From Cenarchaeum symbiosum A (GTDB taxonomy: Archaea > Thermoproteota > Nitrososphaeria > Nitrososphaerales > Nitrosopumilaceae): 64,000 nucleotides of DNA. Under the pieces are notes generated by a model that saw only the letters and a list, made by a program, of their open reading frames with translations, did no database searches and was not told where the DNA came from. The position numbers were made by a program, and so were the translations under genes. Every line of letters begins with the position of its first letter. Position 1 is the first letter of the stretch. This document shows, piece after piece, positions 5,998 to 63,101 of the stretch. Where the stretch lies: assembly GCA_000200715.1 (NCBI GenBank), contig DP000238.1, forward strand, positions 556,154-620,153, given 5' to 3'.

Positions 5998-6022
5998 CCG
6001 ATCAGCCACCCTTTTCCTTGAT

Positions 6023-7294: not shown

Positions 7295-7309
7295 GGGGCG
7301 ACTCTTGGC

Positions 7310-7323
7310 CCGTTTATTATAAA
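7310..7323 (-). promoter_or_regulatory. TATA box of the binding-protein/ilv/leu operon
   Basis: The minus strand reads CTTTATAATAAACG here, centred about 23 bases upstream of the ATG at 7294. This is the spacing expected for an archaeal TATA box driving a leaderless or nearly leaderless message. Confidence 0.6.
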
Positions 7324-7483
7324 GCAGTTGACACGATGCGGGATCTGGTATGCGGCAGCTTCAAAGACTTGACAGGCACCGTTTCCGGGCCCTGGATGCC
7401 TGTTGTACCGGGCCGTGGACGGCGTCTTGTCACAACTGTATCCGGCATTTCATCGTCCCCGGGGGCCCGAAGTCTCTGCTGTT

Positions 7484-33200: not shown

Positions 33201-35077
33201 CGGCTGCTATCTATGTATGAGAGTACGAACAACAAGGTGCCGTTAGCCGAGAAGGAAAAGTCAATGGTATTGCCATCTTCCGGACCCACGTATACGGAAT
33301 CCACAAATGAGGAGTCGGTGGTATTGTACGGCTGCGACAGGTCGTACCTGTACATATGATGGTCGTACCTACCCAGCATGAACATCTGGGCGCCGTCATC
33401 AGAGAAGACCAGTCCCTCGAAATAATCATTTTGTCCTCCGGTATGAAATATTAGATCACGTTCCGGAGCGGCAATGTCATACGTATGGGGCAGGTGATAT
33501 TCTTGCACATAGTCTTCCTGCAGTATGAACATCTTGGTACCATTGCCTGAGAATGCCAGCCCGGTGGCATCATTGTCCTGCAGGTCTATGGATCCTGATC
33601 TGTTCAGCGAGGACAGGTTGTACGGCTCGGCTAGGTCGTACTGATCCAGCATACTATACTCCATCAAGAACAACCTCGTTCCCTCCGGCGAGAAGGCCAT
33701 GTCCAGGATTGATGTCTGGATATCTTGCGTTGAGTTGTATTCCGCCGTGGAGACATCATACGGCACAGGCAGCTTGTATGTCATTATCTGCCTGTAATTA
33801 GACACGAACATCATGTCCCCAGTCGTCGAGAAGTAAAGCCCTGTTCCATAGTAACGCCCGCCATACAAATCATACGATCCTACCTGCCGTGGTGCAATGA
33901 TCTCGTACGGCTCGGACAGAGAGTATGTGTGCACAGACAAGCGGCTGCTATCTATGTATGAGAGTACGAACAACAAGGTGCCGTTAGCCGAGAAGGAAAA
34001 GTCAATGGTATTGCCATCTTCCGGACCCACGTATACGGAATCCACAAATGAGGAGTCGGTGGTATTGTACGGCTGCGACAGGTCGTACCTGTACATATGA
34101 TGGTCGTACCTACCCAGCATGAACATCTGGGCGCCGTCATCAGAGAAGACCAGTCCCTCGAAATAATCATTTTGTCCTCCGGTATGAAGTACACTTGCAT
34201 GCTCAAACCCTGTAAGCCTAGGGGATATACCAAATATCTCTTCACCGTAGTCGGACAGGACAGTAGGCTCAAAGTACAACAACGGCTGCGCATACCTGAC
34301 GACCTCTTGCCTGTTTTCCTCCGTGAGTCGGAATTTGATTGCTCCGGGGTTTTTCACGTCTACAAGTTCCATTTCTGATAGCGTAATTCCAAGCGACGAC
34401 ATAGTATCATTTCTTACCTGGATCCTCTCAGGTTGTATGGCAACGGTGTCAACCGTGTCATCAAATACGATCTCCAACACGCCCGTCTGTCTATCCATAT
34501 AGGCGAAAAGTACGCTAGTTGTGTAATTTACATCGCGTTCATCGCCACGATCATAGCCGCGTTCATCGCCACGATCATAGCCGCGTTCATCGCCACGATC
34601 ATAGCCGCGTTCATCGCCACGATCATAGCCGCGTTCATCGCCACGATCATAGCCGCGTTCATCGCCACGATCATAGCCATTATCTCTGTTCTCTACCACC
34701 GTAATCGTTCCTGTATGCCACGGGTGCACCGAACAAAAGTAAGGATAATCCCCTGGTTCCTCATGAAATATTCTGGAATATGATTCCCCCCTCTCTACGC
34801 TACCACTGTCGAAGAGGTTGTCTTCCTCCCCTATCCCTACTCCACTGGTCACTGTGTGGAAAAACATGTCTTCATTGATCCACGTTATCTCGTCACCCTG
34901 TTCAATTATGACATCGCTTGGAATGTCGCATTCATTGGTCTCTTCACAACCCTGCATGTATGAATTCTCTGATATTATGATGGTTGCTCCGGAACGATCT
35001 GCGTATGACGTGGTAGTGATTGCTACTGCTGCAATAATAAAAAACGTGAAAAACCAGCCAATATTCAGAACCTTCAT
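30206..35077 (-). CDS. giant secreted cupredoxin-propeller surface protein
   Basis: 1623 residues. A signal peptide (1-26) is followed by a plastocyanin-like copper domain (about 30-130) with candidate ligands His74 (MFFHTVTSG), Cys115 and His118 (YFCSVHPWHTG); the usual axial Met position is His121. Next come six GYDRGDER repeats (134-181), an Ig-like module, and about twenty propeller-type repeats (AFSADGxxxFV, RYxLSSPYN) with two internal tandem duplications. Then a Pro-rich stretch, nine glycines, a ~120-residue beta domain with two Cys, an acidic linker and the tail GIIDAITEFFRSLLGL. Probably exposed at the surface; copper suggests electron transfer, but this is inference. Confidence 0.82.
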   Translation of the reverse strand: MKVLNIGWFFTFFIIAAVAITTTSYADRSGATIIISENSYMQGCEETNECDIPSDVIIEQGDEITWINEDMFFHTVTSGVGIGEEDNLFDSGSVERGESYSRIFHEEPGDYPYFCSVHPWHTGTITVVENRDNGYDRGDERGYDRGDERGYDRGDERGYDRGDERGYDRGDERGYDRGDERDVNYTTSVLFAYMDRQTGVLEIVFDDTVDTVAIQPERIQVRNDTMSSLGITLSEMELVDVKNPGAIKFRLTEENRQEVVRYAQPLLYFEPTVLSDYGEEIFGISPRLTGFEHASVLHTGGQNDYFEGLVFSDDGAQMFMLGRYDHHMYRYDLSQPYNTTDSSFVDSVYVGPEDGNTIDFSFSANGTLLFVLSYIDSSRLSVHTYSLSEPYEIIAPRQVGSYDLYGGRYYGTGLYFSTTGDMMFVSNYRQIMTYKLPVPYDVSTAEYNSTQDIQTSILDMAFSPEGTRLFLMEYSMLDQYDLAEPYNLSSLNRSGSIDLQDNDATGLAFSGNGTKMFILQEDYVQEYHLPHTYDIAAPERDLIFHTGGQNDYFEGLVFSDDGAQMFMLGRYDHHMYRYDLSQPYNTTDSSFVDSVYVGPEDGNTIDFSFSANGTLLFVLSYIDSSRLSVHTYSLSEPYEIIAPRQVGSYDLYGGRYYGTGLYFSTTGDMMFVSNYRQIMTYKLPVPYDVSTAEYNSTQDIQTSILDMAFSPEGTRLFLMEYSMLDQYDLAEPYNLSSLNRSGSIDLQDNDATGLAFSGNGTKMFILQEDYVQEYELPIPFTIDLSRLVTSRNGLDSSGSVYDVAFSADGMAMFTGIAGHDAIYRYNLTSPYNTTSPLYVGMGRLGGDDDAAGIAFSADGSTIFVTRYGGYKYSYGYNSNQYVQEAKNASVHSYNLSSPYDISEPAASGSFELDGVHGTGDIVFSEEGMHVFVVAGESIRRYSLSSPYNITSPVPSGSYDLEEYVGQLSGLEFSADGMRMFVSEGRHVYGHDLGRAYDLDQVEYLGSFYTGGQRSDGLAFSADGTGLFVAGGDSISRYILTQYDITSPRLVTSRNGLDSSGSVYDVAFSADGMAMFTGIAGHDAIYRYNLTSPYNTTSPLYVGMGRLGGDDDAAGIAFSADGSTIFVTRYGGYKYSYGYNSNQYVQEAKNASVHSYNLSSPYDISEPAASGSFELDGVHGTGDIVFSEEGMHVFVVAGESIRRYSLSSPYNITSPVPSGSYDLEEYVGQLSGLEFSADGMRMFVSEGRHVYGHDLGRAYDLDQVEYLGSFYTGGQRADGLAFSADGTGLFVAGGDSISRYEPKEQIPQPTVNQDGSGMMGPDTPAMVETVSMDHQIAFASNTLQPDPQPVSQPNPQPDPRPRGGGGGGGGGTSTSITSIGRDVSLEFTADGQDASRGSSEIIIGTNMPLVISPLSADDLDVYDMEVIISSEDGQAKIYYNRIGAFFDRECEGDAAASGSLYTCDVQSLISPSGASYRDDNDGSFESLAVPLEGEFSGTMSMQLRDNSGIILVSHDKVYRINPSSVPVNALDTGPAPEVIIPVQAVEPEMDPEPVIVPEMDPEPVPAEPEPEAEPIIPVEAVKSDTVPGAEDSAKITPAVARVETGQEPGIIDAITEFFRSLLGL
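31181..32721 (-). repeat. two near-identical 755-bp direct repeats, period 786 bp
   Basis: 31181-31935 and 31967-32721 match almost base for base (one visible change: codon for Ala versus Ser in RADGLAF / RSDGLAF). Each encodes a ~260-residue five-blade unit of the surface protein. The period is a multiple of three. Confidence 0.9.
32756..34188 (-). repeat. two apparently identical 692-bp direct repeats, period 741 bp
   Basis: 32756-33447 and 33497-34188 show no difference that I could find by eye. Each encodes about 230 residues of propeller-type repeats in the surface protein. The period is a multiple of three, so copy-number change preserves the frame. Confidence 0.9.
34535..34678 (-). 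repeat. six perfect 24-bp tandem repeats encoding GYDRGDER
   Basis: The unit on the plus strand begins GCGTTCATCGCCACG and repeats six times without change. It forms a charged spacer between the cupredoxin domain and the rest of the protein. Not a CRISPR: there are no spacers. Confidence 0.93.
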
Positions 35078-40866: not shown

Positions 40867-42636
40867 TTGTCTAGCATTTGTAGCGCCAACACTGATTCAT
40901 TGGGTGGCATACTGAATGGAAAAACTCGCTATACCATACCCGATTATCAGAGAAGATATATTTGGCCATCCGAGAGCGTCGAAATTCTATACGAAGATCT
41001 GGTGCTAGATTATGATGAAAGCGGAGAAGGGTACCTACTAGGCCCAATTGTAACCAAACAAGTATCTCCTAGATGTAAGGAAATCATAGATGGCCAGCAG
41101 CGCTTGATTAGCATGACGCTTTTGTTCTGTACGCTACGGGATTGTGTGGTTGAAAAACATCCACCACCCCCTGACGGCAGAGCGACTTTTGAGAAGTTCA
41201 TAAAATCTATTAACATTGCCATACAGGATGATAAAGGAGAACCCCTAATCGAATTAAACAATCGTAAAGCACGTGAGATTTTCAAGAAAATATGCGCTAG
41301 TTCAGACTGGAAACAAAAAAAACTTAAACACCGCCTGTTCTCGAACTATTTTGAGTTATTTAGCAGTGTGGAGGAGCTATGCAGTAAACGTTTTAAAGAA
41401 AGCAAAACGTATGGCGACGGAATAACCGCGATTAGAGAGTTGTTTGACAGGCTCAAGGCATACACCTATTTCATATCTGTTATGATACAGCATGATGATT
41501 ACACATTTCCCGTCTTTCAATCCCTCAATTCAAAAGGACAACCATTACACCAGTCAGATCTAATCAAATCCCATTTGTTAAGCATAGCTAACAAAAATGG
41601 CAAAAAATTCTACGATGAAGTTATTGGCAAATGGGATCAGATAACCAATCTACCAGAGAAGGAAAGTAAAAAAATTGATGAATTGCTCTACCATACAGCA
41701 CTATCCCGTGAGTGCGAGGATAAAACATCTGCCAAAGAAATCCGTAAGAATGACATGTACAAGAGCACTAAATACATAAAAACTCCTAATCAGATAAATG
41801 ATTATCTAGAAAATCTAGAGGAAGATGCCGAAATTTATAAAAAAATAGCCAATCCAGCAGCATTAAAAACCACTATTGACAGATATGCCCATATTCTTTA
41901 TGGAGCTGATCAAATTGGCGCTCGGTATTTTAAAAGAGCCATAATTGCTACACATAGAAAGAAAATAGATTCTGATGCTGTTAAACTGCTAGATTGCTTG
42001 GTCAAGTTCTTTTTTGTGTACAGGACGATTTGTAAGAAAGACATTGATCTATTGAAAAGCATTGCACATACTGTCACATGTAAAATCAACCAGAAAAAGG
42101 ATCTGGGCGAAATATTATGCAGCATATTGATAAATGATAAAGGACGTCAGAATGTAGGGTACGATGAATTTGCCAAAAAAATAAGAGAGAGGACAGATAA
42201 TCTTACAAACAATGTACTCAAATACATACTTTATTCGATCGAGTATAAGCTACAGGAGCCGCGTCCGGTAAAAAATACCCCCAATCTTGAATTGGAGCAT
42301 ATTCTTCCCCAAAAACCTGACAAAAAAGACTGGCACAATGCACCAAAACCAGATGAATATAAAAACGATCTAGGTAATGTCACGTTAATCAAAGAGAAAT
42401 TTAACAAAGACATAAAAAATCATGGTTTTATCAGAAAACGTGACGATGTGAAATCTGGTTACAAAGCATCGAAGTTGGAAATTAACCGACTTTATCTTAA
42501 TAATTACAATACGTGGGATGTGAAGCAGATAGAGGAACGCAGGGAGAATCTGTGCAAAAAAGCAGAGGAGATCTGGGATCTGTCGGAATATACCAAAATG
42601 GCCGAAGCGTACAAGGAAAAATCCAAACGCGGATGA
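40867..42636 (+). CDS. DUF262/DUF1524 fusion, GmrSD-like modification-dependent nuclease
   Basis: 589 residues. The DUF262 (GmrS-like, ParB-related NTPase) half shows IPDYQRRYIW (24-33), EIIDGQQRLISM and FQSLNSKGQPLHQSDLIKSH. The DUF1524 HNH-nuclease half shows LELEHILPQ (474-482), a conserved His/Asp region and LGNVTLI. Fused enzymes of this kind are type IV restriction systems that cut modified (for example glucosylated hydroxymethylcytosine) or phosphorothioated DNA. Start codon is TTG. The gene is far more AT-rich than its neighbours and rich in AAA/AAT codons, so it was probably acquired recently. It diverges from the PAPS/helicase/GHKL operon. Confidence 0.85.
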   Translation: MSSICSANTDSLGGILNGKTRYTIPDYQRRYIWPSESVEILYEDLVLDYDESGEGYLLGPIVTKQVSPRCKEIIDGQQRLISMTLLFCTLRDCVVEKHPPPPDGRATFEKFIKSINIAIQDDKGEPLIELNNRKAREIFKKICASSDWKQKKLKHRLFSNYFELFSSVEELCSKRFKESKTYGDGITAIRELFDRLKAYTYFISVMIQHDDYTFPVFQSLNSKGQPLHQSDLIKSHLLSIANKNGKKFYDEVIGKWDQITNLPEKESKKIDELLYHTALSRECEDKTSAKEIRKNDMYKSTKYIKTPNQINDYLENLEEDAEIYKKIANPAALKTTIDRYAHILYGADQIGARYFKRAIIATHRKKIDSDAVKLLDCLVKFFFVYRTICKKDIDLLKSIAHTVTCKINQKKDLGEILCSILINDKGRQNVGYDEFAKKIRERTDNLTNNVLKYILYSIEYKLQEPRPVKNTPNLELEHILPQKPDKKDWHNAPKPDEYKNDLGNVTLIKEKFNKDIKNHGFIRKRDDVKSGYKASKLEINRLYLNNYNTWDVKQIEERRENLCKKAEEIWDLSEYTKMAEAYKEKSKRG

Positions 42637-42782
42637 CGGCAAATACAGGATAACACACGGGACAGTCGATAAACAGTTAATTGCGTGCCTGTCCGGTTGC
42701 ACGATATGGATGGGCAGTAGATGCACACACGGGACCGCTCAGCGTCTGCCTTTGGCGGTCCGCGCCAAAAGCGCAAGGCGTG

Positions 42783-42818
42783 CCCCCCCCCCCCCCCCCG
42801 AGTAAATTTCACTCGGCT
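42783..42818 (+). repeat. 17-C homopolymer followed by a hairpin, upstream of subtilase 2
   Basis: Seventeen consecutive C (42783-42799) run into CCGAGTAAATTTCACTCGG, a 6-bp stem (CCGAGT/ACTCGG) around a TAAATTT core that could be the TATA element. The ATG of the subtilase is at 42864. Such a tract is prone to slipped-strand mispairing; changes in length would alter promoter spacing. Confidence 0.8.
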
Positions 42819-42863
42819 GTTCTAGCAGGTGGCATAGCCTTGGGCCTGCACAGACGCGGCCGC

Positions 42864-45800
42864 ATGATCGCCATTTCAGCATCCCTTGTATTCCTGTCCG
42901 TACTTGTGGCGTTCTCTGCAGGAGCGCCTTATTCCCAGGCAGAGGAGGGGCACATACAGCTGGTGCACCGCACGATAGACGGGGAGCTGGCCGTATCCAT
43001 GGTACCAGTGCCGGTTACGTCCGTCGAGACATTCGAGCCGCCGCGGCAGTTCCAACTGGAGGCGGACCCCGGCGCAAAGATATCCCCCGCCCTTCAGAGG
43101 TATGCCGAGACCGGGGTACACCCCATGTGCGGCCGGGATATGGACGAGCAGGCGGAACTGCGCTTTGACATTGACTGCTCTGTGCCCGGCGACTTTGAGA
43201 ACCGTTACACCTCCGTATTGATAATGCTCAAGCAGGAGCGGAGGGCGGTAAACTATGCGGAATATAACTACGACATGGAGACGGTATACGGGCTCTTGCG
43301 GGAGGAGGGCGCCAGAAGGTCCGAGGCGGTGGCTGCACCCACAGAATCCGTAAAGGAATACCTTGGGAGCAACAATGCGACTGGAATAGAGGTGTATTCT
43401 GCGATAGGGGGCGTGGTGGCACAGGTACCAGGCTCGCTCATGCCGGGGATAGCTGCATTGGAATGGGTGGAGAGCGTGGATATCACAGAGTACCTGTCCC
43501 CTCTCTTGCTGGACTCGACGCGAAGGTCGACGGGGATAAACTACCTGTATGATGGCGGCTTTGGGGGCAACGGAACCAGAATAGCCACTATCGACAGCGG
43601 TTTGGACATTGTAGACGGAAGCTACGACAATGTTGCCTTTACTGCCGATATAGCCCATGACGACCTTGATGACCTTGACGATGACCCCAACACAGATGAT
43701 CCCAAGGTGGTGTACATTCGGGATGTGTCATTTGACGGCTTTGACAATCCCGTGTATTGCGCCCCTCATGGCACCCAGGTGGCCGGGGTAGCCGCCGGCA
43801 CCGGCTCGATTGATTCGAGGTTCCGTGGCTTTGCCCCATATGCGGAGCTAATCGTATACACGGCCTGTTTTGACGACGATATTGACACCCTTGCCGCCCT
43901 GATCGCCATAGATGATCTGATTAACAACACCCTGGAGGCTCCGGATGAGGGAGCTGACGTACTTACCCTGTCCTTTGGCGGCTTGGGGGAGGGTTACGGC
44001 ACCGGTTTAGATGCACTCTTCGGTGACTTGGCATATGACAGCGGCATTGCGGTTACTTGGGCGGGGGCCAACGAGCTGCCAGATGCCCGGTTCTTCAACG
44101 ATTCAGCTGATGGCCACAAGATGTTTACAGTGGGCCAGACGTTCGAGGACGGTAGCAACACAGACTCTAGCAACTACGGTGTCACCCTTGATGGCAGGAT
44201 AAAGCCCGAGATAGTGGTCCCGGTAAACCCGATAACACTTCCCACGGTGGGCAACACGTATGCTGGAGGCATATCCGGCACGAGCTTTGCAACCCCCGCG
44301 GTTGCGGGGGCCATGGCGACCATGATTGGGTTGTACAAAGAACAGGGCCTGGTGCTGGAGCCGGGTCATGTATACGCAATGATACTCAGTCAGGCCGACG
44401 GGACCGGAAGGGGGAACTTTACGGACATACACATGGATGACAGGCGGGGTGCGGGGGTCATGGGCATGGACTATGGCCGAATGGAGACGCGATCGGGCTC
44501 GCACATGTTCAGCTCCACGGGCAGTGTTACAATCCCCCTAGTCGACATACCGGAAAGAACAGAGAGGATAACTGCCGCGCTGTGGTGGCCAGAAGAAGCT
44601 CTGGATACGGAAACCTTTGACGGGGCCGACCATAATGAGATACACCTGAATCTGAGGCTCAACGGCGCAGCAGAGGTATCATCTACAAACCCGGACTCGG
44701 TACTGCAGAGGCTAGTGCTGGAGGACCCCGTGGCAGGCAGCTCTGGATATGACCTTGTAATCGATTTTGTCGGGGGCGAGGCTCCGCCACAACAGGTGTT
44801 CTACTCGTACACACTATTCTCAGAACAGGACGAGTTTGCCGTGGATTATGCAGCGCTCGCGCCTGACGGGGGGAGCATCAGGATGGGCTTTTCTCGGGAG
44901 GTGGACCCATCCTCGGCGGGTGCCGCGGCCTTCGGCGTGCCCGGCAGCAGCGTCACGGGAACTGTAGTGTCCGGAAGCGAGGTGCTCCTCTCGCTGTCCG
45001 ACCCCCTGCCAGTGGACAAGCCGCCGGAGATAACCCTGTACGGGTCTGTTGCCCCTCGCAATGGCGACGAGCGGCTGGCAATATCGGAGGTGGCAGGCAT
45101 AACGGATGTCGGCGGGGTGCCGCTTGGAACGATATTTGATATTGCACACAACTCGACCCATTTTTTCCTTACCGATAACGATAATCCCACACTGCACATA
45201 TTTGACGACGCCCTGGATCCCGTGGATCTTGTCGATGAGACGTCTCTTGGGGAGGCATGGTCCCCCACCGGGGTGGGGGTCAACGGGACCCACATTGTAG
45301 TGGCAAGCAACTTGGGACGTGTACACGTACTGGATCCTAGTGGGAATCCAGCGGACAGCTTTGACATATCAGGAATCCTTACAACCACGTACGACTTGGC
45401 GCTGGGCCCCGGAATTATCGTATCCGATCCGACAAATGGTACTGTGACTGTATTTGAGCCCGACGGCAGCGGCTACATTGCCTTTGGTAATGACAGTCAA
45501 GCCGATCCCTCTGATGCCGGACAGTTCTTTATCCCTCTGGGCGTGTCATCCAACGGGACCCATATCTTCGTAGCCGACAACTTTAACTTCAGAATACAGG
45601 TGTTTGACGGCAGCGGGACCCTGCGGGATATACTTGACGGGTTCACGGTCCCGGAATGGAGTTTCTTATTTCCTCGGGACGTGTACGTATCTGGCGATAT
45701 CATGCTGGCGGTGGACGATTTTGGTTCTGCGGTCATAAGCAGACAAGGCGACATACTGCAGCAATTTGGCAGGCCCACCCAGGGGCATGTACCCGATACT

Positions 45801-48737
45801 TTGACATCCAACGGAACCCATGTGTTTGTCTCAGAGTTTCCAGTTTTTGATGCAACATCCCCGGTAAACCGGGTCCGCGTGTACGAGTACCACACAGTAC
45901 AGGCCACTGGCGCACCCCGTGTGATCTCCGTGACGGCGCCTGCGGGCACGTACGGGAGCGGCGCCACCATCCCAATCACTGTGACATTCTCCGGAGCAGT
46001 GGACGCCACCGGCATCCCACAGCTGCTCCTGAATATACCCGGGGCGGCCGCCAACTATTCCTCGGGCACGGGCACCACAGATCTCGTCTTTGAGTATGCC
46101 GTACTCCAGAATCACAGCTCGCCGGCGCTCAACTATTCCGACGTGGACTCGCTTGTGCTTAATGGCGGCTCTATAACGGCAGAGGGCTCAATAGTGCCGG
46201 CATTTCTGGAGCTGCCGCCCCCTTCGGCTGCATCATCGCTTGGCGGGTCAGGCGTGGTAATAGAGGCGCCGGGGATCATGCTAGTGCTCGTGGACTCGCC
46301 GATGTCATCAGACGGGCTGCGGGTCTCCGCCCCCATGTCCCGCAGCATAGATGTCTCCGATTCCCCCACCCTCTCTGTGATGGTATCTGGGATGGGAATG
46401 ACTTCGGCAGATACAACGGAGACCCCACTCATTGACGACGGGGCCTCGTTGTCCTTGTCCCTTGGTCCTGCCGATACATCGGCAGTGGCCGACAATGCAG
46501 AGGTGGTACTCGGGGGCAAGCCGCGGGCGGCAGACGCACCCGGCACTGTCGAGATTATCTCCCTGTCGGTCTCTATGAGTGCGGAGGAGGGCCCTGTCTT
46601 GTCCGAGATGGTTACCGGCATGGGCACTATATTCCTGGACTTTACAGAGGCGCCCAGCCTGGAAGATGATGCGTACACTGTCCCGAGGGTGCGGTCTGTC
46701 TCTGCCGATTCTTCCGCTGAAAAAGAGAACGGGACAGTCTCCATAACCATCGTGTTTAGCGAGCCCGTAAACGTGACGGGATTCCCGCTGCTCAGGCTTG
46801 ACGTGGGTGATGATGCCAATTATACAACGGGCTCGGGCACCACCAACCTGACTTTCAGCTATACGGTGGACGCGGGCCACAACTCGGGCGACCTATCCTA
46901 TGCTGGAACAGGCGCGCTTGACGGCAACATAACGGCATCCGATGACGGGGCGGCGGCCAACCTTCTGCTGCCCCGTCCCGGCTCCCCGTCGTCTTTGTCT
47001 GGCAGCTCAGACGTGGTAATAGATACTATGGCCCCCGGGATAGTGCGCATCCTGGCCACTGGGCACAACACACTGGAGGCCACGATGAGCGAGCGGCTCG
47101 ATGCGGGCACCGGCAGGGACAACATCACACTTGTAACAACCGGCAACGGCTCTGGCGCCGCCAACGTGACACTGGTGGTCCCGGTGGCAGAAAACAACCT
47201 GCTCATTACTACCGACCACAACCTCACATCGATACAGAACATCACTGTCCGGTTTGCGAACGTGGCAGACCCCGCGGGAAACCCGCTTTCCCCAGGCGAG
47301 TACAGCCTCTCCGATAACGACAAGGCTCTCATTGGCGGGCTGCCACTCAACATAACAGACGCCGACAACCTGCTGGTCATACACGAGGGGATGCCCGGGG
47401 ACCTGCTCATCGAGGACGGCACATCCGGGAATATGCCGCTCATACTATACCTTGGGCTCACTGTGGAGAATGATACCGCCACGCTGCCCCCGTCGGTGAC
47501 CATCCTGTCCGGAGGCTCCACCGTTTTGCTGCCGGCAAACCTGAACCTGACGGGGTTCAACGGCACACTGCAGATAGCCATCGAAGAATCAGACAGGGTG
47601 CCGGACGTGGACGGCACTCCCCAGGACGGCGCCATAGAGGTGGGACTGCCGGATGCGGACCTTGAGCTGGGCAGCCCTGTCAGTATTTCCCTGGGCGGGC
47701 AAGGGGGGAACACCGGATACCGCATAAACTCGGCTGATTCCACCACGCCCATAGACGCACGGTGCACCGCGGATAGAGCGGCAGGCGCTGTTGCACAGGC
47801 AGAGAGCGGCGGAGCCTGCTCGCTGGATGTAGGCGGGAACCTTACGATATGGACATACGGCCTCTCTGCATTTGGCTCGTACATACCCGCGCCCGAGTCC
47901 CGCGCAGATCCGCTGCCTGCGCCAAGGCCGCGCGGGGGCGGAGGAGGAGGCGGGGGCGGCGGAGCCGTCGTCTCCGGCGGCATCACTGGCCAGACCGCCT
48001 CGCTTGGGTTTGCATCCGGAGGGCAGGATGCAAGAGAATCCCCCTCGGGGATACGCATTGCGCCCGAGGGCACGCTCGTCATAACCCCGGAGATAGAATC
48101 CGACGTCTTTGCGGCAAGGGTATTTTCGATGGAGGTGATCCTGTACGGGATGGGCGCCCAAGAAGACGCCCGCGTCAGGTATTCGGCGGTCCCGGTGCTG
48201 CTCAACTCCGAGCAGTGCGACGGAGAATCGCATGTAGAGGACCGCATATTCGCATGCGATGCATCTTCTGTGATCTCGGAGGGGCAGGCCGGGTATACGC
48301 TTGATGCATCGGGCCGGCTGAGCCTCGAGATACCGTTTGAGGGCGAGTTTTCCGGTACCATGAGTGTCATGTTGCAGGACAACCGCGGCATACTGTTGCT
48401 CTCGCATGAGCGGGATGTATACGAGCTAGACGCGGGGCAGGCAGCGGGGCCATCCTTGGAGGCATCCAGTGCGGATGAGCCCGGCGACGGGCCCGTCGTA
48501 ATGCAAGAGCCTTCGCCGGAGGAAGCCGTTCCACAGGATCCCGCCGCGGAGGCGTCCATGGATGCCGAGCCTGAACCAGAGCCTCTGGTGCCCGCAGAGC
48601 CTGATGATGCAGAGCCGCGCGTCGTACCTGCAGAGCCCGGAATACCCGGGGATCCCCCTGCAGTGCCCGCAGAACCGGGGCCTACCGACCTGCTTGGCAT
48701 GATTGTCGAATGGTTTGCGTCACTGTTTGGCAGATGA
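42864..48737 (+). CDS. giant secreted subtilase-family surface protein (paralogue 2)
   Basis: 1957 residues from ATG 42864 (MIAISASLVFLSVLVAFSAG, a signal peptide); an open frame extends upstream to 42681 through the 17-C tract but lacks a secretory start. The S8 domain keeps the triad: Asp244 (RIATIDSGLD), His302 (CAPHGTQVAG), Ser474 (SGTSFATPAVAG). Next are NHL-like repeats (SNGTHIFVADNFNFRIQVF), Ig-like modules, a shorter Ser/Asp/Pro repeat zone than paralogue 1, a poly-glycine hinge, the ~120-residue two-Cys beta domain (RIFACDASSVISE), an acidic linker, and the tail LLGMIVEWFASLFGR. Together with the gene at 11104 it forms an old duplicated pair. Confidence 0.85.
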   Translation: MIAISASLVFLSVLVAFSAGAPYSQAEEGHIQLVHRTIDGELAVSMVPVPVTSVETFEPPRQFQLEADPGAKISPALQRYAETGVHPMCGRDMDEQAELRFDIDCSVPGDFENRYTSVLIMLKQERRAVNYAEYNYDMETVYGLLREEGARRSEAVAAPTESVKEYLGSNNATGIEVYSAIGGVVAQVPGSLMPGIAALEWVESVDITEYLSPLLLDSTRRSTGINYLYDGGFGGNGTRIATIDSGLDIVDGSYDNVAFTADIAHDDLDDLDDDPNTDDPKVVYIRDVSFDGFDNPVYCAPHGTQVAGVAAGTGSIDSRFRGFAPYAELIVYTACFDDDIDTLAALIAIDDLINNTLEAPDEGADVLTLSFGGLGEGYGTGLDALFGDLAYDSGIAVTWAGANELPDARFFNDSADGHKMFTVGQTFEDGSNTDSSNYGVTLDGRIKPEIVVPVNPITLPTVGNTYAGGISGTSFATPAVAGAMATMIGLYKEQGLVLEPGHVYAMILSQADGTGRGNFTDIHMDDRRGAGVMGMDYGRMETRSGSHMFSSTGSVTIPLVDIPERTERITAALWWPEEALDTETFDGADHNEIHLNLRLNGAAEVSSTNPDSVLQRLVLEDPVAGSSGYDLVIDFVGGEAPPQQVFYSYTLFSEQDEFAVDYAALAPDGGSIRMGFSREVDPSSAGAAAFGVPGSSVTGTVVSGSEVLLSLSDPLPVDKPPEITLYGSVAPRNGDERLAISEVAGITDVGGVPLGTIFDIAHNSTHFFLTDNDNPTLHIFDDALDPVDLVDETSLGEAWSPTGVGVNGTHIVVASNLGRVHVLDPSGNPADSFDISGILTTTYDLALGPGIIVSDPTNGTVTVFEPDGSGYIAFGNDSQADPSDAGQFFIPLGVSSNGTHIFVADNFNFRIQVFDGSGTLRDILDGFTVPEWSFLFPRDVYVSGDIMLAVDDFGSAVISRQGDILQQFGRPTQGHVPDTLTSNGTHVFVSEFPVFDATSPVNRVRVYEYHTVQATGAPRVISVTAPAGTYGSGATIPITVTFSGAVDATGIPQLLLNIPGAAANYSSGTGTTDLVFEYAVLQNHSSPALNYSDVDSLVLNGGSITAEGSIVPAFLELPPPSAASSLGGSGVVIEAPGIMLVLVDSPMSSDGLRVSAPMSRSIDVSDSPTLSVMVSGMGMTSADTTETPLIDDGASLSLSLGPADTSAVADNAEVVLGGKPRAADAPGTVEIISLSVSMSAEEGPVLSEMVTGMGTIFLDFTEAPSLEDDAYTVPRVRSVSADSSAEKENGTVSITIVFSEPVNVTGFPLLRLDVGDDANYTTGSGTTNLTFSYTVDAGHNSGDLSYAGTGALDGNITASDDGAAANLLLPRPGSPSSLSGSSDVVIDTMAPGIVRILATGHNTLEATMSERLDAGTGRDNITLVTTGNGSGAANVTLVVPVAENNLLITTDHNLTSIQNITVRFANVADPAGNPLSPGEYSLSDNDKALIGGLPLNITDADNLLVIHEGMPGDLLIEDGTSGNMPLILYLGLTVENDTATLPPSVTILSGGSTVLLPANLNLTGFNGTLQIAIEESDRVPDVDGTPQDGAIEVGLPDADLELGSPVSISLGGQGGNTGYRINSADSTTPIDARCTADRAAGAVAQAESGGACSLDVGGNLTIWTYGLSAFGSYIPAPESRADPLPAPRPRGGGGGGGGGGAVVSGGITGQTASLGFASGGQDARESPSGIRIAPEGTLVITPEIESDVFAARVFSMEVILYGMGAQEDARVRYSAVPVLLNSEQCDGESHVEDRIFACDASSVISEGQAGYTLDASGRLSLEIPFEGEFSGTMSVMLQDNRGILLLSHERDVYELDAGQAAGPSLEASSADEPGDGPVVMQEPSPEEAVPQDPAAEASMDAEPEPEPLVPAEPDDAEPRVVPAEPGIPGDPPAVPAEPGPTDLLGMIVEWFASLFGR

Positions 48738-54839: not shown

Positions 54840-54988
54840 CCCTGTTATGTCATGGGATTATGGGACAAAAAGTGTCAAGAGCCGGGGAGATGACCAAATT
54901 TCTTTAAATATTGTCAGGCACCAAAAGGCATTCCATGTCCCCGCGGGTTAACAGATTAGAGGCTATGTCCCCGCAACTTAACAGAGTC
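54840..54988 (+). repeat. ~150-bp dispersed repeat, copy B
   Basis: Direct repeat of copy C. It supplies the last ~12 codons of the virus-like gene at 54956-56434 (SVKLRGHSL and stop), so it has cut off that gene's original 3' end. Confidence 0.88.
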
Positions 54989-56434
54989 CTCCCCGCGTTT
55001 TTCAGTTGTCTGATCTTTATACTGTTCTTTAATGTCCTTTAGAACGCCTGACGTCAGGCCCTGCACCATGCCCTGATACCGTTCCTGCATGTCCTTGGGC
55101 TCTATTTTCTTTATGTGGGAATAAGCAACAGCAAACATGTCGTCGCCCTCTTTAAAGCCTATTTTGTAGCCCTCGCCGTCTGCGGGCGCGAAACTGCTCC
55201 CTTCATGCGGATAAGCACTGATCCAATAAACACCGTCTTTGTCAGGCTCTATATGGTTTGGCGGGTTGAAACTGCCTTTGTTGAATCGTGCCGTTTTAAC
55301 TTTGGTCACGGCCGGCTCATAGTAATACTTGTCGATTATCCGCTGCAGGTAATTATCAACGTAATGGCGGCGGTCTCGATCCTCCATGTTGTCGCCGGCG
55401 CGCTCGTGGATCATATGCGCCAGATTGTCGCCCGGCTTTGCAAAGATATTCTCGCCGGGAACGTCCAGCTCGTATTCGCCCTTGCTGTTTGGCTGGCCCA
55501 TTGCGGGCGTGGGGTTAAAGTTATCTGGCTTTAATCTATGATAGCCATGACCAGATTTTAACTGCTTAGGATCGCGGCCGCCGTCTGTAAACTGGACGTC
55601 CTCATCACGCGGATGATCCTCCTTAAAGTCGGCAGCCTGTAAAGAGTCGCCAGAGTACAGCTTTTTCATTTCTGCAATAAAGTTATTCTTGAGTGCGATG
55701 ACGTTTGCCGTAATGTCATGCTCGTTGTTTATCTGATCAGTGATAACATCATGAAGCTCTGCGTGGATCGCGGCTTTTATCCGGCCTGCGACTTGATCAC
55801 CCTTTTTGAAAGTAGGCTTTATCACATGGCCGTCATATTCAAGTCTGACTGTATAAGAGCCATTATCTGACTTCATGCCCGGCGCGGGGCTGAATAATTT
55901 GCGGAACGGGGTCTTTTTGGGTTTTGGCTCAGTCTCATATAGTTTTTCAAGCTTGTCAAATATCCTTTCAGCAGGCCTTTCCCATTGCCGATGTGTGCTT
56001 ATACTGTCCGGTTTTTGGGCAAGTATTTGCTGCCAAACGTCATCGCCCTCTTTTAACGAGATTGTATAATTGTCAAATTTGAACTGATAATTGCCATCTG
56101 CATCAGACTTTGCCCCTGCGGGCGGCCTGAATGTATTGCTGAATGTCGTGCCGCCTGTGCCGAATTTCCCGCCCTCATCCCGGGGATGCTCACTCTCTTT
56201 GAATATGGCCGCCGTCATAGAGTCCTTTTCCCACAGGCCAAGACGATCAAGGGCGGCCATTTCCTCCTCCTCAGTGTCATATTCGGTAAGGCCAAATTCC
56301 GCCTCCTCAGGCGTGACCTTTTCCATAATAAGAGACTCTTGCCCACTGGTTATCTCAAGACGTGACCTCATTACGGCCTTTTTGTGATCAAAGGTTCTCT
56401 TGCCGTTCTTGTCAAGATAAACACCCAGATCCAT
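54956..56434 (-). CDS. virus-like repeat protein with two HPRDE motifs, 3' end altered by a repeat
   Basis: 492 codons. Two copies of the motif seen in tailed-virus minor head proteins occur: SEHPRDEGGKFGTGG (about 80-94) and DHPRDEDVQFTDGG (about 275-288). Four modules of ~90 residues share the pattern 'F-x-P-x-x-x-M/A-x-x-D-x-x-G-x-Y ... F-K-x-G-D': NTFRPPAGAKSDADGNYQF, KLFSPAPGMKSDNGSYTV, DNFNPTPAMGQPNSKGEYEL and GSFNPPNHIEPDKDGVYWI. Helical segments lie between. No catalytic signature seen. Its ATG overlaps the stop of the upstream broken gene (TAATG). I read it as provirus remains; exact function unknown. Confidence 0.55.
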   Translation of the reverse strand: MDLGVYLDKNGKRTFDHKKAVMRSRLEITSGQESLIMEKVTPEEAEFGLTEYDTEEEEMAALDRLGLWEKDSMTAAIFKESEHPRDEGGKFGTGGTTFSNTFRPPAGAKSDADGNYQFKFDNYTISLKEGDDVWQQILAQKPDSISTHRQWERPAERIFDKLEKLYETEPKPKKTPFRKLFSPAPGMKSDNGSYTVRLEYDGHVIKPTFKKGDQVAGRIKAAIHAELHDVITDQINNEHDITANVIALKNNFIAEMKKLYSGDSLQAADFKEDHPRDEDVQFTDGGRDPKQLKSGHGYHRLKPDNFNPTPAMGQPNSKGEYELDVPGENIFAKPGDNLAHMIHERAGDNMEDRDRRHYVDNYLQRIIDKYYYEPAVTKVKTARFNKGSFNPPNHIEPDKDGVYWISAYPHEGSSFAPADGEGYKIGFKEGDDMFAVAYSHIKKIEPKDMQERYQGMVQGLTSGVLKDIKEQYKDQTTEKRGEDSVKLRGHSL

Positions 56435-56870: not shown

Positions 56871-59546
56871 CTATTCGGGGTAATGCTGGCCCAGGATTAC
56901 CGGCACATCCTTCGGGTCCATTGCAATGTCGGACGCCCATGTGCCAAACCGCCCGTCATCGTTCACGGTCTCAACCCACTCCTTTAGGGCATCATTTTTT
57001 GCCTGGACGTTTGCAAGCTCCTGCCCCTTTATCTCCAGAATAAGCATTACACTGTTCCCCGATTCGGGGTTTGTGAGTTTTGCCATAAAGTCGGGCTTGT
57101 AAGTGGCCATATTGCCTCTAAACATGTATGGTATACCAAACCCTATGTTGTCCGCCCTGGTCCACGATTCAACCCTGTTGTTCCTCTCCATCTCCTGTAT
57201 TGCTTTCTTTTCCCATCCTCGATTGTATGGCTGCGGGTTTATGTGGGATTTTTTTACATCCAATACCTTACTGGTGGTAAACTTGTCCATTACGTCAAAA
57301 GTGGATTTCATATTACGTCCCGGTTTGAGTGCCAGGGTCTTTTCCATGGTATTGTTGACGATTATGGCCTGCCGTATGTGGTTGATTATCGCATTCATGT
57401 TGAATATTATCGCAAGCCTCTTCCGTATCTCCAAGTCATCTGGTAGGTTCATCACGCGTATCATGTTTCTGCCTATGAATTCCTCTGCGAGTCTGACCAG
57501 CCTGGCAAACAACTCATATTTTGGGCCGGGCGTATCTATATCGCGATATATGTCACGCGTCACGTGGAACATGATGCTCTGCATGCGTATGCGTGATGCC
57601 GTGTCTTCTAGTTCCATCTTGTCTGCCAGATCCAGGTGCGGTATGTTCGACTCAGGCACTGGCGCCACGTGAACTTTAACATCACAACTGCGACCATCCA
57701 CCCTCAGTTCATTTACGTTCTCCCAGTCCATTTCAAGTTCGGGATGCATGATGGTGTTTATGCGCTCTACATTGGGCCATGCTATCTCGTGTTCTACGTT
57801 CATGGGATCGGGTCGTACCAATATACGTGGATCACTGTTGGTTGTATCTTTTCCACCTTCATGGGGAAGGAATGCAAACGGCACCCCGACTATGTTCACA
57901 TATTCGGGATTGAACATTCCCTTCTCGTTCAGCTCATACGACTGGCGTCGCAGGCCCCTGCCGACCACCTGCTCGCACAATAGCTGGCTTGTAAACGCAC
58001 GCAGTCCCATGACATGTGTTACATTGTTGGCATCCCAACCCTCGGACAGCATCTGGACCGCTATTATGTTGCGGATCTGCTCTCCAGATTTATCTATCTG
58101 TCCTACCGTGTTTACCTTTTCACGTAGGGCAACATCCCCCTTGCTACCTTTGTATTCGCTCATCACATCTGAATCCACGCGGCACATATGCTCCTTGTCC
58201 TTCAGCTCGGCCACGTCAAAAGATATGTCCGTCTTGAAAAAATTCTCTATCCGTGCTGCCGTACTGGTCGTATTGCAGATTGTAATCATCACCGGCGGAA
58301 CACGTGAATCCTTCATAATGTCCCACTTCTTCCGCCAGTCGGCCCCTAGCAATGCATACCCGTTCCTTACAAGGTCAGGCAGCTTTCGGTGTGGGTCGCG
58401 GGCCACCTGCAGGTCGGTTGTGACAGTTTCATCGGCGTATATGTGATAATACTTGGTCTCATCCGTGATTATGGGCTTGATCACATCGTCAGCCGCAGGC
58501 ATGCGCGGGGTCTTGACCAGTCCGGATTCTATGGCATCGTTGAGTGAAAAGTCGCTGATTATCCAGCCGAACAGGTCGTCCTCCCCGCTGAGCCTCCCCG
58601 ACGGTATGAACGGGGTGGCGGTAAAATCAAAGCATCCCCGTATATTTCTGGCCTTGTGTATCTTGTCAAGGCCGCCCATCCATAGCGTGGCTATCATCTC
58701 GTCATCCGTCAGATTCTCATTATCACCGCCGTTCTTGCGCCAGGCATGGTGTGCTTCGTCATTTATCACCATGACGTTGTCATGCCTGTGTCCGAGTATG
58801 CGGCGTGCCACGTCCTCATCGCTTTCCGGTCCCTTGCGTACGACGCCGTTGTTGGTTTCTGATTTCTTGAACTTGTGCCAGTTTGTTATGGTAATATGGC
58901 CCTCCCGGAGTCTGTCGTATAGTGGTTCTGGAACAAGCTCGTATTTCAGATAGTAATTATCTGACTTCATATAATCCAGCACTCCGAGTCTCTGCGTTAC
59001 TGTAATGTTGGGTGCCACCATGAGAAAGTATTTGGAAAAGCGAGAATCAGTAGGACGGTCCAACTTGTTGAGTGTCATCCATGTGATAAGCATGCCCATG
59101 ACTATCGTCTTGCCGGTGCCCGTGGCCATCTTGAAGCATCTGCGCGCAAATTCTCCGCCGTCCCTTGGTATATTGAGGTCCAGTTTTTCATTGTCATCTG
59201 CTTCTGTAAGCCAAATTATGGTCTCCATGGCCTCTATCTGGCAGAAAAATAACCTTCGTACACGTTTTTCGTCCTTCCAGAATTTTAACAGCATCCTGGT
59301 AACCGTTGTTATTCCGGGGTAGCCATCATTTCTCCATCTCTTGACCCGTGGACGTATATCATTTACCAGCTTTATGTGAATACTCTTCCCACGTGCAAGC
59401 TTATTGTCGGTTTCAGATGCCTTTACATATCCCGCTGGACGTCTATTAGAGGTCAGTTCATAATTTTGTCTCTCATCATTCCAGCGCCAGTGTTTTTTGG
59501 GCTCATCATATGGGCCGGTTATGATTAACTGCTTAATTTTTTCCAC
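56871..59546 (-). CDS. res: type III restriction enzyme, Res subunit
   Basis: 891 residues. Cuts DNA and translocates along it in complex with Mod. The SF2 helicase core shows Walker A FKMATGTGKTIVMGML, DEAH-like INDEAHHAW, FTATPFIPSG and a motif VI region VVGRGLRRQSYE. The C-terminal nuclease core is VMLILEIKGQELANVQAKND (E-x-K with a preceding Asp-rich strand), as in type III Res proteins. Length and order are intact. The start overlaps the mod stop codon by 14 bases, which makes the two genes a coupled mod-res operon. Base composition is less GC-rich than the flanking core genes. Confidence 0.92.
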   Translation of the reverse strand: MEKIKQLIITGPYDEPKKHWRWNDERQNYELTSNRRPAGYVKASETDNKLARGKSIHIKLVNDIRPRVKRWRNDGYPGITTVTRMLLKFWKDEKRVRRLFFCQIEAMETIIWLTEADDNEKLDLNIPRDGGEFARRCFKMATGTGKTIVMGMLITWMTLNKLDRPTDSRFSKYFLMVAPNITVTQRLGVLDYMKSDNYYLKYELVPEPLYDRLREGHITITNWHKFKKSETNNGVVRKGPESDEDVARRILGHRHDNVMVINDEAHHAWRKNGGDNENLTDDEMIATLWMGGLDKIHKARNIRGCFDFTATPFIPSGRLSGEDDLFGWIISDFSLNDAIESGLVKTPRMPAADDVIKPIITDETKYYHIYADETVTTDLQVARDPHRKLPDLVRNGYALLGADWRKKWDIMKDSRVPPVMITICNTTSTAARIENFFKTDISFDVAELKDKEHMCRVDSDVMSEYKGSKGDVALREKVNTVGQIDKSGEQIRNIIAVQMLSEGWDANNVTHVMGLRAFTSQLLCEQVVGRGLRRQSYELNEKGMFNPEYVNIVGVPFAFLPHEGGKDTTNSDPRILVRPDPMNVEHEIAWPNVERINTIMHPELEMDWENVNELRVDGRSCDVKVHVAPVPESNIPHLDLADKMELEDTASRIRMQSIMFHVTRDIYRDIDTPGPKYELFARLVRLAEEFIGRNMIRVMNLPDDLEIRKRLAIIFNMNAIINHIRQAIIVNNTMEKTLALKPGRNMKSTFDVMDKFTTSKVLDVKKSHINPQPYNRGWEKKAIQEMERNNRVESWTRADNIGFGIPYMFRGNMATYKPDFMAKLTNPESGNSVMLILEIKGQELANVQAKNDALKEWVETVNDDGRFGTWASDIAMDPKDVPVILGQHYPE

Positions 59547-62122
59547 TTTTGACCTCCATTACACACATGGATTCTATCCCTCTATCATCAACTATCTTTA
59601 CTGCCACCCTGTTCTTTTTCCCCGGTTTAAACGGAATCGATTTACTTCCCTTGTATGTCTCCAAATAATCTGGTTCTATGTAATCATTGAGTGTCTTGTA
59701 TAAATTTGACCATGTATCCTTTCCGCCCATTGGAAAGAATACTTGCTGGGGATAGACACTTCTTCCGTCGTAATCTGTATCTAACATCCACATTACTACG
59801 TGAGAGATGTCACCTGATACTATCTTGTCATTGGCTATGTCATAGAAATCAAAACCCAGAACAGACACCGTGTACATACCATTGCCTTCATCTATCTTTA
59901 TTTCGGGCTGCCCCACTATCATGAAATCATCCCCCCCTGATTTGTTCTTCTTTAGGTGACCTACGAAATTATCCGCATTCATTTGTGCCTTTAGGAATGT
60001 CACACCGTTTAGTTCAAGATTGTCTATGTTATTTGCTGCCTCCGGATCAAACTGCATTCCTCCAAAAACTACAACATCCGGCTTCTTCTTCATCTTCTTT
60101 ACTTCTTCAAACACACCGGTTACTTGACGTGTCTCAAATGGATAGTGCTCTGGCCCAAACGATATCATGACGTTTCTGTGCGCCGTCTCGTTGGTTATGC
60201 CTCTGGCATGAATATACCTAGTGGTTGGAAATGATGACACCTCAATAAATTCTATCTTTTCACCATTTCTTCCTCTTATTCCGGATGCATGTAATTTTGC
60301 TCTCCATTCCTCCTGTCTTTTGTTTATTGTCGCAATATGCGTGCCTCTAGTTCTCTTATCATATAGCGCATCTATAGATATTGCCATGGGGGACGGCACC
60401 GCCTCTACAGTAAAGGGCCCTGATACACGCATTTTGTTTTTATCCTCATCTGGGTTACCGTGTAGAACTATTGATTCCGGCTCTACATCATACGCAAGCG
60501 AACTCGCCGATATTTTCTGGAAGATGCCATCAGGCGTACTGTGTAAAAATCCCGAGTCAACTCCCCGTCCAGGATATCGCAATTTATAATATTTGTATTT
60601 TGATGCCATAATTCTTCTTTTGGCTAGTGTTATTGCTACACGCTGGGTATCTACTGTTATCCATCTCCTGCCATATTCTTCTGATACGTATGCGGTTGTA
60701 CCGGATCCGCATGTTGGATCGAATACGAGGTCTCCGGGATCTGTTGTCATAAGCATGAATCGTCTTATGGTTTTTGCCGTTGTTTGTACCACGTATGTTT
60801 TCCCTTCAAATCCGCCCGATGTTGTATCTAGCCACATATTGTTTAATTGTTCATAATTTGTCTCGTGAAAATAACTAACTCGATTAATTGTGTTTCCACT
60901 AACAACAAGTCGATTCTTTTTTTCCAGATTTTTTATACCATCTTCTTTGATGCTCCATGATCTATTTGCAGGAGGCTTGTATTTTTTATTATTAAACACA
61001 TACGTGTACTGATTCGATTGACCACCTTGTGATACAAGTGCAACAATTCTATATATTTTTGAACCCTCCGGCAAAAGATTAGGGTTTCGACGTTCTTCTG
61101 GGCTCATTCTTCTTCTCTCTCCATTTATCTCTACAAATCTATAATTTGGGTCATTTATTGGAAATGATCTTTTTTCATAAATAGGATTATATTTTAATTC
61201 TGACTTGTTTTTTGCGTACCATATAATGTAGTCACAGACTATGGGTATAGATGACTTGGTAATCGATGTTGCTGTTGTTCTATATTGTATAATGCCTACA
61301 AAATTCTTTTTCCCAAAGACTTCATCCATTAACATTCTTACATAATGCATATTCTCATCTGATATTTGGACTCCTATGCTTCCAGATACTTTCAGTAATT
61401 CCCTAGACAGAACTAGCCTATCTCTCAAATATGATATGTATGAGTGTATTTCAAGATCCCATGTATCCTTAAATGCATGGATGGTTTCCGGCGTATATGC
61501 TAAATCTTTATCACTGCCATCCTTAACTTCTTTCTTGGATACAAACGGTTGGAAATTTGATCCATATTTTATGCCATAAGGAGGGTCGATGTAAATCATC
61601 TGAACCGTATCTGCCATTCGTTCCTTACGCAATAACGAATTCATTACCAGCAAAGAGTCGCCTCCAATCAATCTGTTGGACCAGCCATTTTTATGCTGAT
61701 AGAACTGTATAGCTTTTTCTTCTATAGGGTTGTTCTCTTCGGTCTCAAAATAACTTTCAAATGTTTCCTGCCTACCTGTTTCCTTTTTCATTACCTTGTC
61801 AAGTATTGTGGATGTGTCAATTCTCTCGTGGACATGCAATGAAACGGTTGGTATCTGAAGTTTCTCGGCCTCATATTTGCCAGTCCATTCCATTGTGGGA
61901 TCTTGATGAGAGCTGTACTTGTACGTGGTTGGAATCTCGTCTTGGTCGCGTTCGTAATTTGTTAGACCAACAGGGGGGTTATTGCGACGCTTCTTTTCTT
62001 CATGTTTGTAGGATGATATCTTTTCTTTTGATGTAAGTGGGGGAGATCTCTTTTTCCGGTTGTGTTTTTTGCCAGCACTCTTCTTTTGGGTTGCTGCTCC
62101 AACGCTTATGGGGCGACACCAC
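59533..62122 (-). CDS. mod: type III DNA methyltransferase, Mod subunit, with an N-terminal frameshift
   Basis: The intact ATG frame runs 61893-59533 (786 residues): motif IV IYIDPPYGIKYGSNFQPF and motif I FDPTCGSGTTAYVSEEYGRR in beta-class order. It sets sequence specificity and methylates adenine. The same frame continues upstream without a start codon and encodes a family-like N terminus (NNPPVGLTNYERD, KKRSPPLTSKEKISSYKHEE). A good Shine-Dalgarno AAGGAG (62131-62136) sits eight bases before GTG 62122, but that GTG is one frame off; removing one base of the C4 run at 62110-62113 would join them. So the gene is frameshifted, phase-off, or misread there. Very AT-rich. Confidence 0.85.
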
Positions 62123-62174
62123 CGTTATAACTCCTTTGAATTGTGCCGGTTTGCTCACTTTGTGTTTGAAGTTG

Positions 62175-62244
62175 GAGTGAGTAAGAGTGAGTAAGAGTGA
62201 GTAAGAGTGAGTAAGAGTGAGTAAGAGTGAGTAAGAGTGAGTAA
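62175..62244 (-). repeat. seven perfect copies of a decamer at the 5' end of mod
   Basis: GAGTGAGTAA x7 on the plus strand (TTACTCACTC on the mod strand). The unit is not a multiple of three and has no stop codon in any mod-strand frame. Just upstream is an ATG (62256) with a TATA-like TTTTTATG centred about 27 bases before it. With seven copies that ATG frame ends at TGA 62155-62157; with eight or five copies it would enter the frame of the GTG at 62122. Confidence 0.93.
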
Positions 62245-62256
62245 ATACCCGTTCAT

Positions 62257-63101
62257 ACGAACCGCTCTATTTTGAGCTCATAAAAACATTTTTACCGCGT
62301 TTATAAGCTACTTTAGTCCTTTTCCGTGTCTCCGCCTATTCCCAGTCATGCCCTCGTCTGGCCCTCTTTTCCCCTTGGATATTCGTGATAGTACAAGAAT
62401 CTGCTTCCAATCTGCTCCCTGCTTGTGTTATACCTAGACATGCCTGCCACCTTCCACGTACTCAAAATAATTATACATTTTTTGATGGTCTTTTGATCTA
62501 GTTGCAGTTTGTTGACAAGACATATTCTTCCTTTGTAGTCCGCCCAAGCTCCTGCCGTATCTCCTTAACTCTCCACCGGCCTATGTCTATCCGCACCGCA
62601 ACATACTCCAGCTCGAACCACAAGGACTACTTCCTGACCTGTATGCCTCCTGCAGACCCACAGTGTTTCTGGATCCTTTTGCCGTCCTAAAACACCACCG
62701 TATTCCCTCTAGGTGTAAGGTGTTGCTATGTTGAACGTATAAGTGACATCAAGTACGCCACTCTCATTCCGACTCTCACCTTCCAGTGGGGCTGCCGCAA
62801 ACTGTATTGCCCTATCAGGATCGTCTCTGTCTCTATCATTTTGTTCAAGATTCTGTATCCTGAATATCACAAGGTCACTATCTCCTACCCCGACCCATGT
62901 AGGTCACAAAGCTTTCTGCTGTGTTGACACCGGTTATCCAAACATCTTTCATTTCAGCAATTCCTGTTTCTGAATCATGTTCAATGTTGGTACCGGCTAC
63001 ACAACTGCCGTCCAGTTTGAACAGTACTACCACATTACCAATTTCATTCTTGATCAGACTGTGTCCATATTTCTAGACACCATTCCGATCTCTCCACATT
63101 G
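62257..63101. other. promoter and gene-remnant region between mod and the last surface protein
   Basis: Holds the TATA-like box upstream of the decamer tract (about 62280-62287), then short minus-strand coding-like scraps: MSRYNTSREQIGSRFLYYHE and on (ends near 62345), and a 41-codon frame at 62498-62623 (FELEYVAVRIDIGRWRVKEI). None is long enough to name. The broken gene at 62709-63072 is listed separately. Confidence 0.45.
62709..63072 (-). pseudogene. broken secreted-type protein downstream of the last surface gene
   Basis: One frame reads SLIKNEIGNVVVLFKLDGSC ... DVWITGVNTAESFVTYMG, then a one-base shift near 62885-62904 moves the sense into a second frame, VGDSDLVIFRIQNLEQND ... VLDVTYTFNIATPYT and stop at 62709. 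There is no ATG at the 5' end. The last residues resemble the frame ending at 8799, so this is a small family with two damaged members here. Function unknown. Confidence 0.55.

What the first reader, a model, noticed from the sequence alone, without database searches (positions are those of the whole stretch)
62120..62290. Decamer repeat tract suggests a phase-variable type III restriction-modification system in an archaeon
Seven perfect GAGTGAGTAA units sit between a TATA-associated ATG (62256) and the mod gene. The 10-bp unit shifts frame with each gain or loss and is open in all three mod-strand frames, the layout of bacterial phase-variable mod genes (phasevarions). At n=7 the ATG frame ends at TGA 62155-62157; at n=8 or 5 it runs into the GTG at 62122. 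The repeat also lies where it could change promoter-to-gene spacing.
Basis: partly seen in the sequence, partly recalled or inferred. Interest (0 to 1): 0.85.

Follow-up and report, generated by a model that had tools for sequence, protein, structure and literature searches.

The report
Decamer repeats before archaeal methyltransferase gene
Seven perfect copies of a 10-base repeat lie just before a DNA-modification gene of a sponge-dwelling archaeon; they cannot switch that gene by reading frame as first proposed, but they belong to a wider set of slippage-prone tracts near gene starts in this genus, which hints at a switching system hardly known in archaea.

Summary
The repeat is real: 7.0 perfect GAGTGAGTAA units at 62175-62244, the only such array in the genome (probably Cenarchaeum symbiosum A). 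Mod and Res are an ordinary, otherwise intact type III pair. The proposed frame switch fails: with 1-14 units, translation from ATG 62256 never enters mod (at most 108 codons). The conserved mod frame has stops at 62155 and 62125 after the repeat and no ATG/GTG/TTG before its conserved N-terminus. The best start, GTG 62122 with a well-spaced Shine-Dalgarno, lies after the repeat and is one base out of frame with mod in the assembly. So the repeat sits in a leader or upstream ORF, not in mod.

A hypermutable mod gains support elsewhere. The congener's mod has G13 inside its ORF (G10/13/16 ON, other lengths OFF). The second type III mod of this genome has C9 18 nt before its start. C. symbiosum carries 18 G/C runs of 9-17 bases, bimodal in length and enriched at gene starts. 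Homologues outside Cenarchaeum lack convincing tracts. Variation between cells could not be tested. Most likely: a slippage-prone leader tract that tunes mod expression; neutrality is not excluded.

The parts
62175..62244 (-). Seven perfect decamer units (TTACTCACTC read on the mod strand)
   Evidence: TRF 7.0 copies, 100%; only place in the genome with two adjacent units
62300..62306 (-). TTATAAA, best TATA-like element; predicts a transcript start near 62280
   Evidence: Position; TATA peak at -25 to -36 from start codons in this genome
62279..62286 (-). TTTTTATG, weaker TATA-like element 30 nt before ATG 62256
   Evidence: Position; weak match, inferred
62155..62256 (-). Upstream ORF from ATG 62256 (33 codons at n=7) that contains the repeat
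   Evidence: Frame simulation for n=1-14; use as an ORF is inferred
62117..62137 (-). AAAGGAG (62137-62131) plus GTG GTG (62122-62117), likeliest mod start, one base out of frame with mod in this assembly
   Evidence: GGAG at -12 is the commonest spacing in this genome
59533..62124 (-). mod: conserved type III methyltransferase frame, 863 codons, no ATG/GTG/TTG upstream of ATG 61893
   Evidence: Pfam N6_N4_Mtase, PADLOC MTase_III, EcoP15I Mod; DPPY and DPTCGSGTT motifs
56871..59546 (-). res: type III restriction subunit
   Evidence: ResIII, NCBIfam BPTD_3080 family above cut-off; GTGKT and DEAH motifs

Best explanation
The array is a slippage-prone (VNTR-type) tract in the 5' leader of an archaeal type III mod-res operon. 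Shown: its position, perfection and rarity, an intact mod-res pair, and the lack of any path from ATG 62256 into mod. Inferred: transcription starts near 62280 from TTATAAA 62306-62300; the leader carries the repeat; mod starts at the Shine-Dalgarno-led GTG 62122. Copy number then changes leader length and, if ATG 62256 is used, where the short upstream ORF ends relative to the mod ribosome site: before it (n=4, 7, 10), just past the GTG (n=6, 9) or about 120 nt past it (n=5, 8). That would tune mod expression through coupling or interference rather than switch it by frame. It belongs to a wider set of hypermutable tracts near gene starts in the genus Cenarchaeum.
For: Perfect identity of all seven units points to recent slippage. 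The repeat lies between a TATA-like box and a Shine-Dalgarno-led GTG whose spacing is the genome's commonest. The termination points of the upstream ORF for each n come from simulation. Tracts recur at type III mod starts in the genus: C9 before mod2 of this genome and G13 inside the congener's mod. 18 G/C runs of 9 or more in C. symbiosum, with a second length peak at 11-13, are enriched near starts, 11/18 against 28%. Eleven thaumarchaeal homologues outside Cenarchaeum have no tract.
Against: No copy-number variation has been seen; one assembled genome only. Predicted Shine-Dalgarno accessibility does not change with n. The GTG start is one base out of frame with mod in the assembly, so no start gives full-length Mod without a frame change. 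Neither the promoter nor the upstream ORF has been shown to be used.
Confidence: 0.42

Rival explanations
1. Neutral tandem repeat: the array arose by slippage in a spacer and its length has no effect on mod.
For: The repeat is outside the mod ORF; accessibility of the ribosome site does not change with n; two other arrays with periods not divisible by 3 exist in the sampled 41% of the genome, one of them with no predicted gene start nearby.
Against: Tracts recur at the start of the other type III mod and of the congener's mod, and G/C tracts are enriched at gene starts.
Confidence: 0.28
2. Classical frame switch as in bacterial phasevarions: Mod is translated from ATG 62256 through the repeat, ON at n=5, 8, 11 and OFF at n=7, and the assembly (or the sequenced variant) has a one-base frame break between GTG 62122 and the conserved mod block.
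For: At n=5, 8, 11 the ATG frame runs through GTG 62122. Homologues show that the mod frame should have a start 17-57 codons before NNPPVGL, which GTG 62122 would supply but for one base. The congener's mod has exactly this kind of switch with G13.
Against: On the sequence as assembled no n from 1 to 14 reaches mod. Even with the frame break removed, GTG 62122 with its own Shine-Dalgarno would make Mod whatever the repeat number.
Confidence: 0.2
3. The array is an operator: seven sites one helical turn apart bound by a regulator of the operon.
For: Unit length is close to one helical turn, and the array lies between a TATA-like box and the gene.
Against: All copies are identical, as expected from recent slippage rather than a maintained operator; the motif pair occurs nowhere else.
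Confidence: 0.05

Closest known systems
[quoted passage not shown] ModS of Streptococcus suis, PMC8125046)
   Same: A type III mod with res, and a perfect short tandem repeat whose unit is not a multiple of 3, near the 5' end of the gene.
   Different: Here the repeat is outside the mod ORF and cannot switch it by frame; the host is an archaeon; no length variation has been shown.
Mod homologue of the congener G001 with G13 tract (L008)
   Same: 49% identical Mod of the same genus with a slippage-prone tract at its start.
   Different: G13 is inside the ORF and gives the classical ON/OFF pattern; here a decamer lies in the leader.
EcoP15I-type type III restriction-modification
   Same: Mod matches EcoP15I Mod (4zcf) and PADLOC MTase_III; Res has a ResIII domain.
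   Different: Longer Mod (about 860 aa) paired with a BPTD_3080-family Res.
Promoter or leader repeats that change expression level in bacteria (general knowledge, e.g. poly-G in the meningococcal porA promoter)
   Same: A repeat near the promoter rather than inside the ORF.
   Different: Here the repeat lies downstream of the predicted TATA box and transcript start, not in the promoter spacer.

Membership tests
Type III restriction-modification system | Adjacent mod and res genes with catalytic motifs | tested here: met
Type III restriction-modification system | Full-length Mod translated from a start codon in frame with the conserved N-terminus | tested here: not met
   No ATG/GTG/TTG in the mod frame before the conserved block; GTG 62122 is one base out of frame
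Bacterial-type phase-variable mod (phasevarion) | SSR tract inside the mod open reading frame (PMC8125046) | tested here: not met
   Repeat lies upstream of mod; two stops separate it from the mod frame
Bacterial-type phase-variable mod (phasevarion) | Change in repeat number switches mod between in-frame and out-of-frame | tested here: not met
   Simulation for n=1-14 never reaches mod; met in the congener G001 with G10/13/16
Bacterial-type phase-variable mod (phasevarion) | Repeat number varies between cells or strains | not testable with these tools
   One genome per species held; no reads
Bacterial-type phase-variable mod (phasevarion) | Methylation and expression of a regulon follow the mod state | not testable with these tools
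   Needs methylome and transcriptome data

The most novel reading that the evidence does not exclude
Cenarchaeum archaea run a genome-wide set of contingency loci: slippage-prone tracts at the starts of type III mod, surface-protein and glycosylation genes, including tracts between TATA box and start codon (L155, L162). The decamer would be a leader or upstream-ORF version that controls an archaeal phasevarion.
Probability: 0.3. Interest if true: 0.85.

Novelty: new variant of a known kind. Interest (0 to 1): 0.6.

Why it matters
Repeat-based phase variation is documented almost only in bacteria; a 2025 review names archaea as an open field (PMC11868660), and my searches of the paper library found no archaeal case of slippage-driven switching. 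If these tract lengths vary, a sponge-associated archaeon would use the same bet-hedging strategy as host-adapted bacteria on the same gene classes (restriction-modification and surface genes). The first test is simple: count tract lengths in reads from sponge samples.

Tried and rejected
Reading-frame switch from ATG 62256: rejected for the assembled sequence by simulation. Ribosome-site masking by the repeat: predicted accessibility is flat with n. The same repeat in viral contigs: none. SSRs as a general trait of this Mod subfamily: 11 thaumarchaeal homologues outside Cenarchaeum with readable N-termini have none; of the homologues none but the congener has a long tract near its start, only runs of eight A or T and a few 3-copy arrays (L076, L086, L143). 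The Atack 2018 type III survey and a 2020 companion are not held. The gene caller behind the enrichment test is crude and missed mod2, so 11/18 undercounts by at least one.

Full report
Identity. The window lies in a single-contig genome of 2,045,086 bp, about 57% GC in sampled stretches. This fits Cenarchaeum symbiosum A (2.05 Mbp, 25 RM loci including two complete type III systems; PMC10609329). The name is an inference from size and content.

Observation. Seven perfect GAGTGAGTAA units are at 62175-62244. Two adjacent units occur nowhere else in the genome. In 844 kb (41% of the genome) seven perfect arrays were found, three of them with periods not divisible by 3; the decamer has the shortest unit and the most copies. 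The coordinates of ATG 62256, TGA 62155-62157 and GTG 62122 are right.

Gene. Mod (minus strand, conserved frame 62124-59533) is a type III N6-adenine-type methyltransferase (Pfam N6_N4_Mtase; PADLOC MTase_III; EcoP15I Mod). Res (56871-59546) is of the BPTD_3080 family. The mod frame is open for 863 codons.

Frames. The conserved N-terminal block (SYKHEEKKRRNNPPVGL) is in the same frame as ATG 62256, but that frame has TGA 62157-62155 and TAA 62127-62125 after the repeat and no ATG, GTG or TTG until ATG 61893, which lies after the block. Changing the copy number from 1 to 14 gives products of 13 to 108 codons and never Mod.

Start site. GTG 62122 follows AAAGGAG, whose GGAG begins at -12, the commonest spacing in this genome. 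Eleven thaumarchaeal homologues outside Cenarchaeum with readable N-termini all have an in-frame start 17-57 codons before NNPPVGL; GTG 62122 would fit that range but is one base out of frame. The mod frame resembles a Nitrosopumilus Mod N-terminus up to about 62100 (score 50, 2 of 2000 shuffles as high; the GTG frame scores 33, 27 of 2000), so the break probably lies between 62117 and about 62085. Sequencing error, an OFF variant or early decay cannot be told apart here.

Promoter. TATA-type hexamers peak 25-36 nt before start codons in this genome, so leaderless genes are probably common. TTATAAA at 62306-62300 predicts a transcript start near 62280; the repeat would then be transcribed leader. 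TTTTTATG, 30 nt before ATG 62256, is a weaker candidate for a leaderless upstream ORF. Both lie upstream of the repeat, so repeat number does not change that spacing. Predicted Shine-Dalgarno accessibility is flat across n.

Relatives. The only congener found among the genomes searched, G001, has a 49% identical Mod with G13 inside its ORF; G10, G13 and G16 give 858-860 aa, other lengths from 9 to 17 give 14-60 aa. The second complete type III locus of the window's genome (L167: mod2 5725-7422, res2 3230-5728, minus strand) has C9 ending 18 nt before its TTG start, with a Shine-Dalgarno-like GAGGAG between them. The thaumarchaeal homologues outside Cenarchaeum show no tract.

Genome-wide tracts. 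C. symbiosum has 18 G/C runs of 9 or more: 9:1, 10:2, 11:5, 12:6, 13:3, 17:1, against 10 runs of exactly 8. A second peak at 11-13 is not expected of a steadily declining run-length distribution. Of nine genomes of the same order other than the two Cenarchaeum searched, only G028 has a run of 12 or more. Eleven of 18 tracts lie within -250..+150 of a predicted gene start against 28% of random positions (p=0.003); in G001 it is 13 of 35 against 17% (p=0.003). G001 stretches were partly chosen for tracts, its genome-wide counts (8:161, 10:53, 12:46) are a heavy tail rather than a clean second peak, and its sampled GC is 69%, so it is weaker evidence. Tract-bearing genes include ORFs that begin with signal-peptide-like sequences (L153 subtilase, L155, L160, L162, L165, L166; by eye), a glycosyltransferase/epimerase pair (L156) and mod2. 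In L155 and L162 the tract lies between a TATA box and the start codon at about the usual total spacing.

Verdict. No variation has been seen, so phase variation remains a hypothesis.

Noticed in passing
window 42783-42799: C17 run at the 5' end of the ORF of a large subtilase-type surface protein (ORF 42681-48737), upstream of its likely signal peptide.
   Followed up: partly
L162 and L155, tract at about 1502-1514: G/C tract lies between a TATA box and the start codon, so tract length would change TATA-to-start spacing.
   Followed up: partly
L152 and L156: Long coding stretches change frame at a 12-base G/C tract: a split surface-protein ORF (L152) and a glycosyltransferase/epimerase junction (L156).
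   Followed up: partly
L167:7441-7449: C9 tract 18 nt before the TTG start of the second type III mod of this genome.
   Followed up: yes
L051 (G001:C1 714879-718697): A second mod-like gene of the congener is interrupted by about 1.2 kb that encodes a transposase-like ORF.
   Followed up: no
G001:C1 1566042/1568136, 2144291/2146385, 2509722/2511816, 2784852/2786946: G10 runs in inverted pairs exactly 2,094 bp apart, as if at both ends of a repeated mobile element.
   Followed up: no
window 40867-42636: GmrSD-family type IV restriction gene next to the C17-bearing subtilase.
   Followed up: no
window 54956-56434: 492-aa ORF with three similar segments and no match in Pfam, NCBIfam, PHROGs or PADLOC, near the mod-res pair.
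   Followed up: partly
window 19271-19869 and 34534-34678: 5.9 copies of a 102-bp repeat and 6 perfect copies of a 24-bp repeat, both with periods divisible by 3.
   Followed up: no
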